Shown here one piece after another: positions 1 to 9,423 of a DNA stretch of 49,571 nt. Below the pieces are notes generated by a model. That model searched no databases. It saw only the letters and a list, made by a program, of their open reading frames with translations, and was not told where the DNA came from. Source of the DNA: an uncultured bacterium. Its GTDB lineage: Bacteria; Cyanobacteriota; Vampirovibrionia; Gastranaerophilales; Gastranaerophilaceae. Each line of letters starts with the position of its first letter. Within the stretch, counting starts at the first letter, position 1. The position numbers and the translations under genes were made by a program. Where the stretch lies: positions 1 through 49,571 of the forward strand of contig CADBUZ010000006.1 of assembly GCA_902797985.1 (NCBI GenBank). The letters are read 5' to 3'.

Positions 1-150
1 CATCATTATACCCTTTAAAGCGGAGTTTGGGGACATTGCGTGCGTTGGCACATGTATTTTTATTACATTTACCCCTGTCTTCAAGATGATAACTTGAGGT
101 CAAGAAATCTTATAAATACCTTAATAAATAGATATAAGGAGGTATTTATT

Positions 151-1107
151 ATGACAAAACTAACAAAAAACACTACTTTTAAAACATTGACACATTTATG
201 GTTAAAAGAAAAACAGGCTATGGTTACCCAATCAACTTATGCCGGATTTTTACTTATTGTTGAAAATCATCTGATACCGTATTTTGGGACACAAAAAATA
301 TGCGATATAACAGAACCAAAAATTCAGGAATTTATTTTTTATCTTTTTAATAATGGACGACTTGATAATTCCGGCGGTCTTACAGTAAAAACTATAAGGG
401 ATATCATTCTTGTCTTAAGGCTAACATTAAATTTTGCATATAAATCAAGAGTAATTGCCGCATTAAATTGGGATTTAATAGACTACCCAAAAGATTCGGC
501 AATTAAAAAAGTTATAGCATTATCCAAGGACGAAGAACAAATGCTGATACAAGCAATTTATTTGAATTTAACAAGAAAATCTGTTGGAATATTACTGACG
601 CTATTTACCGGATTGAGGATAGGAGAACTTTGCGGTTTACAAATGTCAGATATATCTTTGTGCAATAATACTATAACTGTTAACAAAACTGTACAAAGAA
701 TTTATGATAAATTAAAGAAAACATCATATATTCACATCGGCGCACCCAAAACAAAAAGTTCGCAAAGAACTATTCCCGTACCATCATTATTAATGAATAT
801 TATAAAAAAGTTTTATACAAATAATCCTAATCACTATTTTTTAACAGGGAAATCAACCCCGACAGAACCAAGAGTTTATAGACAATTTTTTGCAAGATTT
901 GTGAAAAAACATGAACTAACACCGGTAAAATTTCATGAACTTCGTCATACATTTGCAATTAGAGCAATAGAAATTTCGGATTTTGATATAAAATCCCTGT
1001 CAGAAATATTAGGACACAAAAATGTATCATTCACTTTAAATGTTTACGGAAGAGCAAACCTTCAACAAAAAATCAAATGTATGAATTTGTTGAATGATTT
1101 GCTGTAA
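151..1107 (+). CDS. Tyrosine recombinase / phage-type integrase
   Basis: Site-specific DNA recombinase of 318 aa. It would cut and rejoin attachment sites to integrate or excise the element it sits on. An N-terminal SAM-like core-binding domain (about residues 10-110) precedes the catalytic domain. All catalytic residues are visible: R156 in TGLRIGEL, a Lys near 200-202, H262 and R265 in HELRHTF, H289 in LGHKN and the nucleophile Y299 in NVYGRA. I chose the ATG at 151 because AAGGAGG lies 9 bases upstream; the frame stays open to position 40 but without a ribosome site. It is followed at once by a strong hairpin and converges on the zinc-ribbon gene. It looks intact. Its own att site is not recognisable near the window edge. 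Confidence 0.95.
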   Translation: MTKLTKNTTFKTLTHLWLKEKQAMVTQSTYAGFLLIVENHLIPYFGTQKICDITEPKIQEFIFYLFNNGRLDNSGGLTVKTIRDIILVLRLTLNFAYKSRVIAALNWDLIDYPKDSAIKKVIALSKDEEQMLIQAIYLNLTRKSVGILLTLFTGLRIGELCGLQMSDISLCNNTITVNKTVQRIYDKLKKTSYIHIGAPKTKSSQRTIPVPSLLMNIIKKFYTNNPNHYFLTGKSTPTEPRVYRQFFARFVKKHELTPVKFHELRHTFAIRAIEISDFDIKSLSEILGHKNVSFTLNVYGRANLQQKIKCMNLLNDLL

Positions 1108-3061: not shown

Positions 3062-3105
3062 TCTCCATCTCATAGTTAATTACATCTTGTTCTGTATGTT
3101 AAATT

Positions 3106-3249
3106 ACACCAAGCGGAGCTTGGTTAGGTTCGAGCGGGAGTGAGCTGAGTGCGAAGGTTTAATCTTTGAAACAAACGAAGTTTGTAAAAAGATAAACCGA
3201 AGACACGTTATAAGCGAACGACCAAGACAGTCCCATCTTCGACAATAAA
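3106..3249 (+). repeat. Mini-hairpin repeat, copy A
   Basis: A gene-free stretch, richer in G+C than its surroundings and packed with small dyads that have GNA triloops: ACCAAGC-GGA-GCTTGGT (3108-3124) and ACAAAC-GAA-GTTTGT (3171-3185). It ends in CAAGACAGTCCC...CGACAA, a phrase that recurs at 8249-8270. Open frames here are not gene-like. No coding gene is seen between 3062 and 3526. Confidence 0.7.
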
Positions 3250-3281
3250 AAGAGGAATGACATTTGTTATTCCTCTTTTTA
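3250..3281 (+). terminator. Terminator-like hairpin after repeat copy A
   Basis: AGAGGAATGACA pairs with TGTTATTCCTCT (one G-T pair) and is followed by a T run. It sits directly after the conserved end of the repeat, as the hairpin at 8274-8301 does after copy C. Confidence 0.6.
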
Positions 3282-3310
3282 TATTGAAAAGGTGAGGGCT
3301 TTAATCTACC

Positions 3311-3474
3311 TGTGCGAAGCACAAGTGGGTTCGGCGCAAGCGAACAGAGGAATGAGCAACGAAGTTGCGAAATGTGAACAATTATAATCCAAAACCACGC
3401 TTTTGGATTTAATTGTGAACGTTTCCGTTTAACGTGAGCGCAGCAAGATGTCCCATCTTCGACATTTTTAATTA
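3311..3474 (+). repeat. Mini-hairpin repeat, copy B
   Basis: Contains TGTGC-GAA-GCACA (3311-3323) and GCAAC-GAA-GTTGC (3356-3368). AGGAATGAGCAAC onward (3348-3372) and CGTTTAACGTGAGCGCAG (3426-3443) recur in inverted orientation at 9116-9140 and 9042-9061. CGTTTA...GCAGCAAGA recurs directly at 8119-8141. Confidence 0.75.
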
Positions 3475-3510: not shown

Positions 3511-3535
3511 ATGTAAGTTGTGGTTTCTACCCTAA
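3511..3535 (+). repeat. GTAGGTTGGG repeat, copy 1 (degenerate)
   Basis: GTAAGTTGTGGTTTCTACC followed by TAATAGTTTT. It overlaps the stop codon of the HEPN gene, so the last residues of that protein are encoded by the repeat. Compare the copies near 4277, 7997, 8723 and 8887. Confidence 0.5.
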
Positions 3536-3925
3536 TAGTTTTGATAAATATTCTTTTAGCGAATTCAAAAAATATTTTGTTTCTTCTATCGAAATAATTA
3601 AATCTTCTTCTGTTGGAGTATATGTGAAGTCGTAGTCAGATTTTTGTCTGTTTGAAAAGGACTCTCTGTATATAGCATATATTTTTGTGTCAAAAATATT
3701 TTCATCATAAATATATTTTTTATTAAACCAGCCCATAAGTTGTGAATGTTTGGAAGTTATAAAATTTTCTTTGTATGCTAAAGCACTAACCATATAAAAA
3801 ATTGAATAATATAATCTGTTTTGGCAAGCATCATAATGTTTATCTTTAAAATTTGATAAAGCCGATAACATAGCTTCATCAGATTTTTGAATTGCTTTAT
3901 TTATCAATTCAAGATTATACTCCAT
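3527..3925 (-). CDS. HEPN-domain toxin of a HEPN/MNT pair (UPF0332-like)
   Basis: A 132-aa all-helical HEPN domain. The core NRLYYSIFYMVSALA (about 36-50), SKHSQL and the later RQKSDYDF (about 93-100) match the UPF0332-type HEPN proteins that pair with MNT nucleotidyltransferases. Known members act as toxins or RNases that the partner neutralises, in some systems by adding AMP to a tyrosine. It is encoded directly after the MNT gene with an 11-bp overlap, the usual order for translational coupling. The C-terminus ends within a dispersed repeat (3511-3535), so the original tail may have been replaced. Confidence 0.85.
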   Translation of the reverse strand: MEYNLELINKAIQKSDEAMLSALSNFKDKHYDACQNRLYYSIFYMVSALAYKENFITSKHSQLMGWFNKKYIYDENIFDTKIYAIYRESFSNRQKSDYDFTYTPTEEDLIISIEETKYFLNSLKEYLSKLLG

Positions 3926-4229
3926 AAAAGACTCCTTTGTTTACAACTTGATTATGGTATATCTCATTTTGCATTAAGTCTTTTTTTGACATTGGGTGTA
4001 AATCTAAAGAAATATCTAATTCTAATTCTAATTCTCCAATAATAGTCCATAGTTGTAATCTGTCATTATGATTAAGTGTATTCTCAAATATTGCAACAAT
4101 ATCAATATCACTTGTTTCAGTTTGAGTATTATTTGCGTACGAACCATATAAATAAATTCCATTAAAATTAGAAAAAACTGACTTTATTTTATTATTTAGT
4201 TTATTTATTATATATGCAATATCCTTCAT
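3915..4229 (-). CDS. MNT nucleotidyltransferase antitoxin
   Basis: A 104-aa minimal nucleotidyltransferase of the polymerase-beta fold. The signature GSYANNTQTETSDIDI gives G29, S30, D41 and D43; a third acidic residue is probably D72 or D76 in the ELDISLDLH strand. In HEPN/MNT modules this enzyme modifies and silences the HEPN toxin. It is first of the pair on the minus strand and overlaps the HEPN start. There is no other domain and no signal peptide. The module is complete and looks functional. Confidence 0.88.
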   Translation of the reverse strand: MKDIAYIINKLNNKIKSVFSNFNGIYLYGSYANNTQTETSDIDIVAIFENTLNHNDRLQLWTIIGELELELDISLDLHPMSKKDLMQNEIYHNQVVNKGVFYGV

Positions 4230-7996: not shown

Positions 7997-8018
7997 GTGG
8001 TAGAACCCCCAACCTACA
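7997..8018 (-). repeat. GTAGGTTGGG repeat, copy 3
   Basis: On the minus strand TGTAGGTTGGGGGTTCTACC, then ACAACAATAACTTTT. The same tail occurs after copy 4 at 8741-8757. Confidence 0.6.
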
Positions 8019-8021
8019 AAC

Positions 8022-8270
8022 TCGAAGTAGCACGGAGCAAAGCGAACGACAATTTTGTGAAAACAAAATAAAGTGAGCGACTGCGAAGTGTGAAACAATA
8101 ATCCGATACTAGTCCCGCCGTTTAGCGCGAGCGCAGCAAGACAGCGGATTTGCGGACGGACGACACGAAGTTAGTCCGGATGGCGAACAGATTTTGTTGG
8201 CAGGTACGAAGTACCGAAAACAAAACTCTGTGAGCGTGGAGCAAATCCAAGACAGTCCCGCCGTCGACAA
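8022..8270 (+). repeat. Mini-hairpin repeat, copy C (composite)
   Basis: A 250-bp mosaic in the gene-free stretch 7843-8329. It has GGTAC-GAA-GTACC (8203-8215), CGTTTAGCGCGAGCGCAGCAAGA (8119-8141, matching copy B), GGAGCAAAGCGA (8034-8045, also at 48533-48544) and the terminal phrase CAAGACAGTCCC...CGACAA shared with copy A. The frames that cross it (for example 8109-8351 minus) are low-complexity shadows. Confidence 0.7.
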
Positions 8271-8273
8271 AAG

Positions 8274-8301
8274 AGGACAAGCAAAAGCTTGTCCTTTTTT
8301 T
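8274..8301 (+). terminator. Terminator-like hairpin after repeat copy C
   Basis: AGGACAAGC, loop AAAA, GCTTGTCCT, then seven T. It is in the same position relative to the repeat end as the hairpin at 3250-3281. Confidence 0.7.
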
Positions 8302-8329
8302 ATTGATAAAAATATTTTATTATAAATCA

Positions 8330-8764
8330 TTAAACGTTTGATTGTTGCCATTCGGCTTTTTGGAATTCTGCAATCAGATTACCAATAACAGTTTCATCAC
8401 CACTGTTAAGAACTGCCTGTACACTATCATACTGACTATCGGATAACCAAGTTGCAATAGCAGAACGTAATGCACTAATTTGTGTTGTTGTCAAAGTATA
8501 ATTATCAGCCGTTTTTATTGATTCAATACTATGTCCGCTGACAAATTGGTCTGTAACTTTCACACCTTTTGTGGTATCACCAAAATCAGCAGTATTTGTA
8601 ATATACATATTCTTAGACTCATCTTCAATGATGTGACCTTCTCCGTCAATTTTAACATCATAACGTATAATAATGTTGGCTTTATTAACACCAATTTCTA
8701 TACTGTCATTATCGCCTGAGCCTGTAGGTTGGGTTTTCAACCCAACAATAACTTTTTGGTGCAA
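8330..8764 (-). pseudogene. C-terminal fragment of an unknown protein, 5' end replaced by a repeat
   Basis: An open frame of up to 144 codons. Its only upstream start is a TTG inside the GTGCAA iteron cluster, its first ~14 codons are read from the GTAGGTTGGG repeat at 8723-8748, and no ribosome site is present. The remainder (IEIGVNKANIIIRYDVKIDGEG, then a helical C-terminus) looks like the end of a larger, surface- or phage-type protein, but I cannot name it. I read it as a truncated remnant left by insertion of the repeat. Confidence 0.5.
8723..8757 (+). repeat. GTAGGTTGGG repeat, copy 4
   Basis: TGTAGGTTGGGTTTTCAACCC then AACAATAACTTTTT, a hairpin with a GGGTT/AACCC stem. It forms the 5' end of the truncated frame on the minus strand. 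Confidence 0.65.
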
Positions 8765-8816
8765 TTATGTGCAAAAATGTGCAAGAATAGTGCAAAAAAG
8801 GAGTAAAAAAGTGCAA
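8759..8816 (+). repeat. Helically phased GTGCAA iterons
   Basis: GTGCAA begins at 8759, 8769, 8779, 8790 and 8811, with spacings 10, 10, 11 and 21 bp, so all copies face the same side of the helix. No gene lies between 8765 and 9251. Confidence 0.6.
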
Positions 8817-8886
8817 GACAAGTTAGTTTTCGTCCGATTTGAAATTTAAATTCTCAGCCAACTTTCTACCGCTACAATTTAGTGGT

Positions 8887-8912
8887 GTTGGGCAAGTATG
8901 CCCAACCTACAT
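8887..8912 (-). repeat. GTAGGTTGGG repeat, copy 5 (hairpin)
   Basis: On the minus strand TGTAGGTTGGGC, ATACTT, GCCCAAC, an 8-bp stem. It is the member with the cleanest hairpin. Confidence 0.6.
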
Positions 8913-8954
8913 TTGTTTACTTCCGAGCAAAATGGACAAAAAAATATAACTATA

Positions 8955-9030
8955 CCGCTGTTCTATTTTGATAAAACAAAAACAGGGATAAACCCTGTTT
9001 TTATTTGATAAATTTGGAGAAGGTGGGATT
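8955..9030. repeat. 76-bp direct repeat, distal copy (att-like)
   Basis: Identical to 9192-9267 except for three bases. It contains the tRNA-Ser terminator hairpin and the last ~15 nt of the tRNA-Ser gene (GGAGAAGGTGGGATT), then diverges in what would be the T-loop. This is the expected trace of integration into, or recombination at, a tRNA gene. Confidence 0.75.
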
Positions 9031-9041
9031 GTATTTAACAA

Positions 9042-9190
9042 CTGCGCCCTCGCGTTAAACGGAACCGTTCGCACTCAAAATCAAAAGCGTGGTTTTGATT
9101 TATTCGTGCTTCACCTTTCGCAATTTTGTTGCTCATTCCTTTGCTCGGGCTTGTTCGAACCAAAGACAAAGCTTCGCTTTGTGGTTCTCA
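9042..9190 (-). repeat. Mini-hairpin repeat, copy E (inverted relative to copy B)
   Basis: The reverse complement shares AGGAATGAGCAAC..TTGCGAAA and CGTTTAACGCGAG with copy B. ACAAAGC-TTC-GCTTTGT (9166-9182) is a GAA-triloop hairpin on the minus strand. It fills almost all of the 161 bp between the two 76-bp repeats. Confidence 0.7.
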
Positions 9191-9191
9191 T

Positions 9192-9267
9192 CCGCTGTTC
9201 TATTTTGATAAAACAAAAACAGGGATAAACCCTGTTTTTATTTTATAAATTCGGAGAAGGCGGGATT
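9192..9267. repeat. 76-bp direct repeat, proximal copy overlapping tRNA-Ser
   Basis: Partner of 8955-9030. It spans the terminator and the 3' end of the intact tRNA-Ser gene. Confidence 0.75.
9210..9246 (-). terminator. Terminator of tRNA-Ser
   Basis: On the minus strand AAAACAGGG, TTTAT, CCCTGTTTT, with T tracts. It is duplicated at about 8973-9007 within the direct repeat. Confidence 0.7.
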
Positions 9268-9338
9268 CGAACCCGCGGTGGAGTTTCCCCCACACAAACG
9301 TTCCAGGTTTGCACCTTAAACCACTCGGACACCTCTCC
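9252..9338 (-). tRNA. tRNA-Ser (anticodon GGA)
   Basis: A class II tRNA with a long variable arm. The acceptor stem GGAGAGG pairs with CTTCTCC (one G-T). The anticodon stem GCAAAC/GTTTGT holds the 7-nt loop CTGGAAC, so the anticodon is GGA and reads UCC and UCU. The T-arm is GCGGGTTCGAATCCCGC. CCA is not encoded. The 3' end faces the accessory region on the left, and a 15-nt copy of that end recurs at 9016-9030. Confidence 0.96.
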
Positions 9339-9423
9339 ATTGATATGACTATCTTTTAGTTTTTTCTACTATTTTTATGCGATTTTCCCGCCGCTGATTT
9401 TTATAATATATCATAAAATTGAA

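What the first reader, a model, noticed from the sequence alone, without database searches (positions are those of the whole stretch)
8955..9338. 76-bp duplication of the tRNA-Ser 3' end and terminator: an integration hot spot
8955-9030 repeats 9192-9267 with three changes and contains the last ~15 nt of tRNA-Ser(GGA), diverging in the T-loop, where tyrosine recombinases often cross over. The accessory region lies on the 3' side of the tRNA, as expected for islands, and a tyrosine integrase gene is at 151.
Basis: partly seen in the sequence, partly recalled or inferred. Interest (0 to 1): 0.58.

Follow-up and report, generated by a model that had tools for sequence, protein, structure and literature searches.

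The report
RtT-like repeat unit behind tRNA-Ser
The repeat is a small, non-coding, folded unit carrying a spare copy of the end of its neighbouring tRNA gene, one of many such units in these gut bacteria and built like the little-understood RtT repeats of E. coli, rather than the border of a large genomic island.

Summary
The 76-bp repeat is real (8955-9030 vs 9192-9267, 96%, 237 nt apart). [quoted passage not shown] It does not bracket the integrase. It brackets a 161-nt non-coding insert: a hairpin ending in this tRNA's T-stem half (GATGAGAACC...GGTTCGA) and a folded "payload" with compensatory changes. The locus is not unique: 16 of 38 tRNA genes here (BLAST, 5 kb) have a second copy of their own 3' end downstream, cut at or near the T-loop. 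Relatives show occupied, differently occupied and empty sites. The 110-nt payload of a neighbouring array covaries strongly, occurs in 125 of 192 genomes of the order, and in some also sits in loops of unrelated palindromes, so it is probably mobile. The same anatomy occurs in the E. coli tyrT/tyrV RtT repeats (178-nt units) and at enterobacterial tRNA-Pro(cgg). The integrase at 154-1107 most resembles recombinases beside hsdS genes, and four relatives with displaced tRNA-Ser ends lack it. Best reading: T-loop-targeted, trans-mobilised, RtT-like units; enzyme unknown.

The parts
9251..9339 (-). tRNA-Ser(gga), intact
   Evidence: ARAGORN; Rfam RF00005 51 bits
9192..9267 (-). proximal 76-bp copy: T-loop to 3' end of the tRNA (9251-9267) plus terminator hairpin (9215-9239)
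   Evidence: terminator-like stem found (symmetrical, reported on +)
9155..9192 (-). hairpin GATGAGAACC...GGTTCGA whose 3' arm repeats the end of the T-stem 5' half of the tRNA
   Evidence: one match in the window, 0 in 100 shuffles; T-stem correspondence
9030..9154 (-). payload (type C), folded, non-coding, ends ...AATACA
   Evidence: dispersed repeat; covariation
8955..9030 (-). distal (displaced) 76-bp copy: tRNA 3' end plus terminator
8145..8254 (+). payload type A in an orphan array; followed by a tRNA-Leu(gag)-type 3' end at 8255-8269
   Evidence: R1 125.7 bits; tail match; sequence
8110..8144 (+). truncated second displaced tRNA-Leu-type end (TAGTCCCGCC) and payload remnant ending AAGACA
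   Evidence: read
3127..3244 (+). orphan unit: GGTTCGA, payload, AAGACA, then GTCCCATCTTCGACA (tRNA-Leu-like 3' end)
   Evidence: read
3245..3464 (+). second orphan unit with its own terminator, type C payload and GTCCCATCTTCGACA at 3450-3464
   Evidence: BLAST 81% to the 9031-9191 insert

Best explanation
[quoted passage not shown] SHOWN: the unit holds (1) the tRNA's own T-loop-to-3'-end sequence and a terminator, so the tRNA gene stays whole while the old 3' end is displaced downstream; (2) a hairpin whose 3' arm matches the T-stem 5' half of that same tRNA; (3) a folded payload with a closing stem and a short conserved tail (AAGACA/AATACA). Units of this build sit behind many tRNAs of this genome and of relatives, and behind tRNA-Tyr and tRNA-Pro in enterobacteria. 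INFERRED: units arrive by site-specific recombination at the T-arm catalysed in trans (no unit codes for an enzyme), one after another, and amplify as tandem arrays. The payload is itself a mobile folded element that recognises hairpin loops, so the T-arm, as a single-stranded hairpin, would be the target. Enzyme unknown: XerC/XerD-like proteins, RAYTs, or recombinases supplied by other elements.
For: Same-tRNA 3' ends downstream, none upstream: 12 of 38 tRNAs in G000, 7 of 42 in G079, 3 of 32 in G033 (two of these are neighbouring duplicated tRNA genes); upstream 0, 0, 1; by BLAST within 5 kb 16 of 38. Swapped-tail control 3 of 1404 pairs. Among 61 displaced copies in the held loci (a biased sample), 30 are preceded by AAGACA and 34 end in ACA; of these 34, 30 could be tested and their left flanks match the T-stem of their own tRNA better than in any of 10,000 permutations (88 vs mean 71.1; position 52 matches in 28 of 30). 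Several units bring a different terminator (Val, Ile, Tyr), and in G002 the window's terminator type is found displaced behind another unit. Payload covariation: type A 96.3% vs 85.2% shuffled, score 0.330 vs 0.121, 0 of 500; type C 97.2% vs 85.7%, 0.379 vs 0.178, 0 of 500. Payload A elsewhere sits in palindrome loops without target duplication. Same anatomy in E. coli and at tRNA-Pro(cgg).
Against: No circular form, enzyme or movement was observed. In the window itself the two copies share the same terminator and 76 nt, which a duplication event also explains. Several tRNAs in this genome have displaced ends of another type (GGAGTCCTT junctions), so more than one process may act. The swapped-tail count was low but not zero. 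The type C 'further pair types' measure does not exceed its shuffles (474 of 500). The genome-wide count of 12 of 38 means most tRNAs have no detected unit within 800 nt. 29 of 49 exact payload-A ends had no same-strand tRNA upstream in the piece held, some of them chance matches. The enzyme is a guess.
Confidence: 0.55

Rival explanations
1. The unit is primarily an RNA gene, not a mobile element: read-through of the tRNA transcript releases a folded trailer RNA (as recalled for RtT of E. coli) in which the extra T-arm halves pair with the tRNA end and regulate its processing or another target. Copies spread by tandem duplication and selection.
For: Strongly covarying structure on the tRNA strand; all units lie downstream and in the sense of the tRNA (reverse-orientation copies 0 in all three genomes); the E. 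coli relative is annotated as an RNA and matches Rfam RtT; in type C helices G-T pairs (31) outnumber A-C (2).
Against: Payload A in other genomes sits mostly away from tRNAs, in palindromes (2 of 37 distinct copies at tRNAs); most units here carry a terminator between the tRNA and the payload; the G-T excess comes largely from a few columns and is weak for type A (8 vs 3).
Confidence: 0.25
2. Local duplication only: the 3' part of the tRNA gene and terminator was duplicated in tandem and unrelated interspersed repeats later accumulated between the copies.
For: In the window both copies have the same terminator and 76-nt identity; tRNA-Gly(ccc) and G010 tRNA-Ser carry near-identical tandem units.
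Against: Break points recur at the same T-loop nucleotide across tRNAs, genera and even E. coli; several copies have different terminators; T-stem matching of the payload's left flank is unexplained.
Confidence: 0.12
3. One reading: attachment site of a larger island integrated by the tyrosine integrase at 151.
For: T-loop junction, intact tRNA and displaced fragment, variable DNA on the 3' side.
Against: No third copy beyond the integrase; hsdS-linked recombinase by its closest relatives; displaced tRNA-Ser ends present in genomes without the integrase.
Confidence: 0.04

Closest known systems
RtT RNA / 178-bp repeats of the E. coli tyrT-tyrV locus (Rfam RF00391; rttR, tpr)
   Same: Units directly downstream of the tRNA, each starting with that tRNA's sequence from the T-loop (TTCG|AATCC), at exact 178-nt spacing, then GATGAGAAGC...AAGGTTCGA (T-stem of tRNA-Tyr is GAAGG), a payload with a closing stem, and the next copy.
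   Different: E. coli has this at tRNA-Tyr, and here also seen at tRNA-Pro(cgg); the window's genome and its relatives have it at many tRNAs with several payload families, usually with an intrinsic terminator in each unit. The window does not match the RtT model (E<=1).
Unannotated unit behind enterobacterial tRNA-Pro(cgg)
   Same: GATGAGAACCTCC-loop-GGAGGTTCGA-payload-|ATCCTCTATCACC, matching the T-stem GGAGG of its tRNA (loci L328, L329, L332).
   Different: One unit per locus in the three loci examined; enterobacterial payload sequence.
tRNA-targeted genomic islands (Islander type)
   Same: Regenerated tRNA plus displaced 3' fragment mark the ends (PMC4383910, abstract and passages seen).
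   Different: No integrase and no gene inside; 237 nt instead of kilobases (Islander filters for an integrase gene and length).
MITEs and REP/BIME palindromes
   Same: Short, folded, dispersed, non-autonomous (PMC10969869, passages seen).
   Different: No target-site duplication at payload A; coupled to the tRNA's own 3' end; the genome's RAYT genes lie among different repeats.

Membership tests
tRNA genomic island (Islander definition) | intact tRNA plus displaced 3' fragment in direct orientation | tested here: met
tRNA genomic island (Islander definition) | integrase gene between tRNA and fragment | tested here: not met
   161 nt between the copies, no ORF of 80 aa or more there
RtT (Rfam RF00391) | match to the Rfam covariance model | tested here: not met
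   not among matches at E<=1 for window 8000-9400; the four E. coli units score 133-138 bits
RtT-like architecture | unit begins with the neighbouring tRNA's own sequence from the T-loop to the 3' end | tested here: met
RtT-like architecture | GATGAGAA..hairpin..GGTTCGA before the payload, matching the tRNA's T-stem | tested here: met
   permutation test
RtT-like architecture | released RNA product | not testable with these tools
   no expression data; for E. coli recalled, the paper is not held
MITE | terminal inverted repeats | tested here: met
   payload A ends GGATTTGC/GCAAATCC, invariant in 29 of 29 aligned sequences; note that the search patterns required the right end and most of the left one
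MITE | target-site duplication | tested here: not met
   tRNA-Leu(gag) copies read GGGTTCAA|payload|GTCCCGCC, the uninterrupted T-arm
MITE | related autonomous insertion sequence in the genome | not tested
   only PF01797, PF02371 and PF00589 were searched in G000
REP/RAYT element | GTAG-flanked hairpin next to a RAYT gene | tested here: not met
   three RAYT-type loci in G000; one 21-nt type C match beside one of them, otherwise no payload
Integron cassette | integron integrase in the genome | tested here: not met
   three PF00589 proteins in G000, all below the integron-integrase cut-off
IS110 / bridge-RNA element | IS110 transposase in the genome | tested here: not met
   PF02371 absent from G000; a trans source is not excluded

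The most novel reading that the evidence does not exclude
RtT of E. coli, the proK unit of enterobacteria and the units of the Gastranaerophilaceae are one class of genome parasite or RNA gene, never grouped before as far as my ten paper searches show (listed in Tried and rejected): minimal non-coding elements that home to folded T-arms, as single-stranded DNA hairpins or through RNA, each carrying a spare tRNA 3' end matched to its host tRNA, with a payload that can also jump into the loops of other palindromes.
Probability: 0.35. Interest if true: 0.8.

Novelty: new variant of a known kind. Interest (0 to 1): 0.62.

Why it matters
RtT has stood as an E. coli curiosity. A bacterial family in which a large share of tRNA genes carry units of the same build, with many natural variants, makes its origin and function testable by comparison. 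If mobile, these would be among the smallest site-specific integrative elements (about 0.2 kb, no genes), and they would show that a tRNA T-arm can serve as a general insertion target. It also warns that a displaced tRNA 3' end need not mark an island.

Tried and rejected
Island attachment site of the window integrase: rejected (no third copy, hsdS-type relatives, displaced ends in genomes without it). Simple 76-bp target-site duplication: not general, because several units have different terminators. RAYT mobilisation: the three RAYT-type loci of G000 carry their own GTAG repeats and, apart from one 21-nt match, no payload. IS110/bridge RNA: no PF02371 in G000. Integron: no integron integrase. 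Known Rfam RNA in the window: none besides tRNA at gathering; weak hits at E<=1 far below gathering. Phage carriage of payload A: four exact hits in viral contigs, none with the payload. Generic pattern GATGAGAACC..GGTTCGA in viral contigs: 73 sites, near what chance should give (my estimate), 1 of 73 beside a tRNA with a displaced end (L333, tRNA-Ala). The off-lineage genome hits that I looked at (for example Methanoperedenaceae, Hydrogenedentota, Aureispira, Glaciimonas) lack the payload. Paper searches found no description of these units; this is a limited, open-access library.

Selections: alignment A1 used 29 of the 37 distinct payload-A sequences (eight, mostly near-duplicates, left out); A2 used 10 hand-picked type C copies. 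Copy numbers are capped by the number of candidates scored (19 and 13).

Full report
Observation. tRNA-Ser(gga) is on the minus strand at 9251-9339. The shared tRNA part is its last 17 nt, and the copies part in the T-loop. There is no third copy further left.

What lies between. The 161 nt between the copies is a dispersed repeat: one search lists 18 matches of the 446-nt query in the genome, the window's own included; some match only the tRNA part, but many match the insert, several of them beside other tRNA genes (Gln, Ser-gct, His, Thr, Arg, Leu). I took stretches around all 38 tRNA genes and looked for a second copy of each tRNA's own 3' end. BLAST finds one within 5 kb downstream for 16 of 38. 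The stricter test (last 15 nt, up to 2 mismatches, 800 nt) gives 12 of 38 downstream and 0 upstream. A near-complete genome of another genus (G079) gives 7 of 42 and 0. A genome of another family (G033; 32 of its 43 tRNAs fetched) gives 3 of 32 and 1, two of the three being neighbouring duplicated tRNA genes. Tails of other tRNAs are rarely found (3 of 1404 pairs).

Anatomy. In tRNA orientation most units read: tRNA 3' end from the T-loop, terminator, GA(T/C)GAGAAC(C), hairpin, (G)GTTCGA, payload, AAGACA (or AATACA/GATACA), then the displaced tRNA 3' end with its own terminator. The sequence before the payload matches the T-stem of the same tRNA: over 30 testable units (of 34 ending in ACA, of 61 displaced copies in the held loci) the match score is 88 against a permuted mean of 71.1 and maximum of 85 (0 of 10,000), and position 52 agrees in 28 of 30; tRNA-Leu(gag), whose T-loop is TTCAA, has units with TTCA. 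In one search, 20 of 49 exact payload-A ends had a same-strand tRNA upstream in the piece held; in 18 of these 20 the next 15 nt equal that tRNA's own tail with 0-1 mismatches. Other junction types exist in the same genome (for example GGAGTCCTT before a shorter tRNA end) and I did not resolve them.

Occupied and empty sites. At tRNA-Ser(gga), G006 (same genus) has the same kind of unit with a different distal terminator and nothing in common to its left. G002 has another unit type, behind which lies a displaced end with the terminator type that G000 has at the tRNA. G005 and G001 show no displaced copy. G019, G021 and G010 in other genera have units of the same kind, G035 a displaced copy of another kind. 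G004 has a unit of the window's payload type at tRNA-Ser(cga). This fits units that bring a new terminator and push the old 3' end away.

Folding. Payload A (110 nt; window 8145-8254) has 27 consensus pairs in 29 sequences, 13 with two-sided changes, 96.3% of cells paired against 85.2% in shuffles, covariation 0.330 against 0.121 (0 of 500), and collapses when slid. The window's own payload type C gives 97.2% against 85.7% and 0.379 against 0.178 (0 of 500) in 10 sequences; one of its five measures does not exceed the shuffles. In both cases the structure was derived from the same alignment. Whether DNA or RNA folds is open; G-T to A-C counts are 8 to 3 (type A, one poorly aligned pair left out) and 31 to 2 (type C).

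Spread. A covariance model of payload A hits 125 of 192 genomes of the order, nearly all in the window's family, and 98 of 292 genomes drawn from the phylum, all listed ones in that family. In G021, G162 and G116 only 2 of 37 distinct copies are at tRNAs; the others sit inside other repeats, such as CATCCTGAACTT|payload|GTTTCAGGATC. A wider set of 69 contexts includes TTCCCCTCGCCCCTTGAGGGAGA|payload|GGGCTAGGG. Insertion leaves no target duplication (tRNA-Leu: GGGTTCAA|GTCCC). So payload A looks mobile in its own right. Family f1 is taken as Gastranaerophilaceae-like because contig lengths of several of its genomes coincide with records titled Candidatus Gastranaerophilales; the order is in the taxonomy.

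The integrase. The PF00589 protein at 154-1104 is 72-74% identical to proteins in three viral contigs. In the two examined it lies beside Methylase_S (hsdS) genes in opposed orientation. The window's first 103 nt on the minus strand end in NVPKLRFKGYND, which resembles the HsdS start seen there (LRFPGF). It is therefore probably an hsdS-shuffling recombinase of the PsrA kind (PMC4948785 and PMC7096588, search listing and abstract beginnings only). G000 has only two further PF00589 proteins, XerC/XerD-like. Genomes G002, G010, G021 and G035 have displaced tRNA-Ser ends but no homologue at E<=1e-10.

Closest known. I recalled the E. coli tyrT repeats and tested them. MG1655 1286400-1287800 (annotated rttR, tpr, tyrT, tyrV) shows displaced tRNA-Tyr ends at exact 178-nt steps, each starting at TTCG|AATCC. 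The units contain GATGAGAAGC..AAGGTTCGA and a payload with a closing stem; the tyrT-tyrV spacer contains GGTGAGAACC..AAGGTTCGA. Rfam calls the four units RtT. A 93-nt stretch occurs in 4692 of 5426 E. coli genomes, 1-10 places each, median 3. Klebsiella and E. coli tRNA-Pro(cgg) carry one unit of the same build with that tRNA's T-stem (three loci). One viral contig has such a unit at tRNA-Ala. The window is not a member of Rfam RtT but has its architecture. The published function of RtT is recalled only; the paper is not held.

Verdict. The locus is one instance of an RtT-like class of non-coding, T-loop-targeted units that is common in this bacterial family. The mechanism proposed (trans-catalysed site-specific insertion at the T-arm, payload mobile by itself) is the best fit but unproven.

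Noticed in passing
window 1-1107: Tyrosine recombinase next to a truncated HsdS start at the contig end; its relatives lie beside hsdS genes: probable hsdS shuffling system cut by the assembly.
   Followed up: partly
window 3113-3464 and 8012-8269: Orphan arrays of units ending in tRNA-Leu-like 3' ends, with no tRNA-Leu gene in the window.
   Followed up: partly
window 3069-3110 and G000:C20:17355-17396: A 42-nt motif CTCATAGTTAATT..TGTTAAATTACACC, dif-like to the eye, found only twice in the genome and abutting truncated units both times.
   Followed up: partly
L180-L219, L220-L259: Payload A inserted in loops of unrelated palindromic repeats, a different repeat family in each genome.
   Followed up: partly
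L328, L329, L332: Unannotated RtT-like unit behind tRNA-Pro(cgg) in Klebsiella and E. coli records.
   Followed up: partly
L173-L175: Three RAYT-type loci in G000, one gene with stop codons, among GTAG repeats; similar palindromes occur at window 8720-8750 and 8885-8912.
   Followed up: partly
genomes G047, G021, G157, G184: Several short (about 180-220 aa) PF00589 proteins per genome, absent from G000; possible mobilisers.
   Followed up: no
window 3527-4229: HEPN and nucleotidyltransferase gene pair, as in HEPN-MNT toxin-antitoxin systems (Pfam).
   Followed up: no
L333: Viral contig with a unit of this build behind tRNA-Ala(ggc).
   Followed up: no
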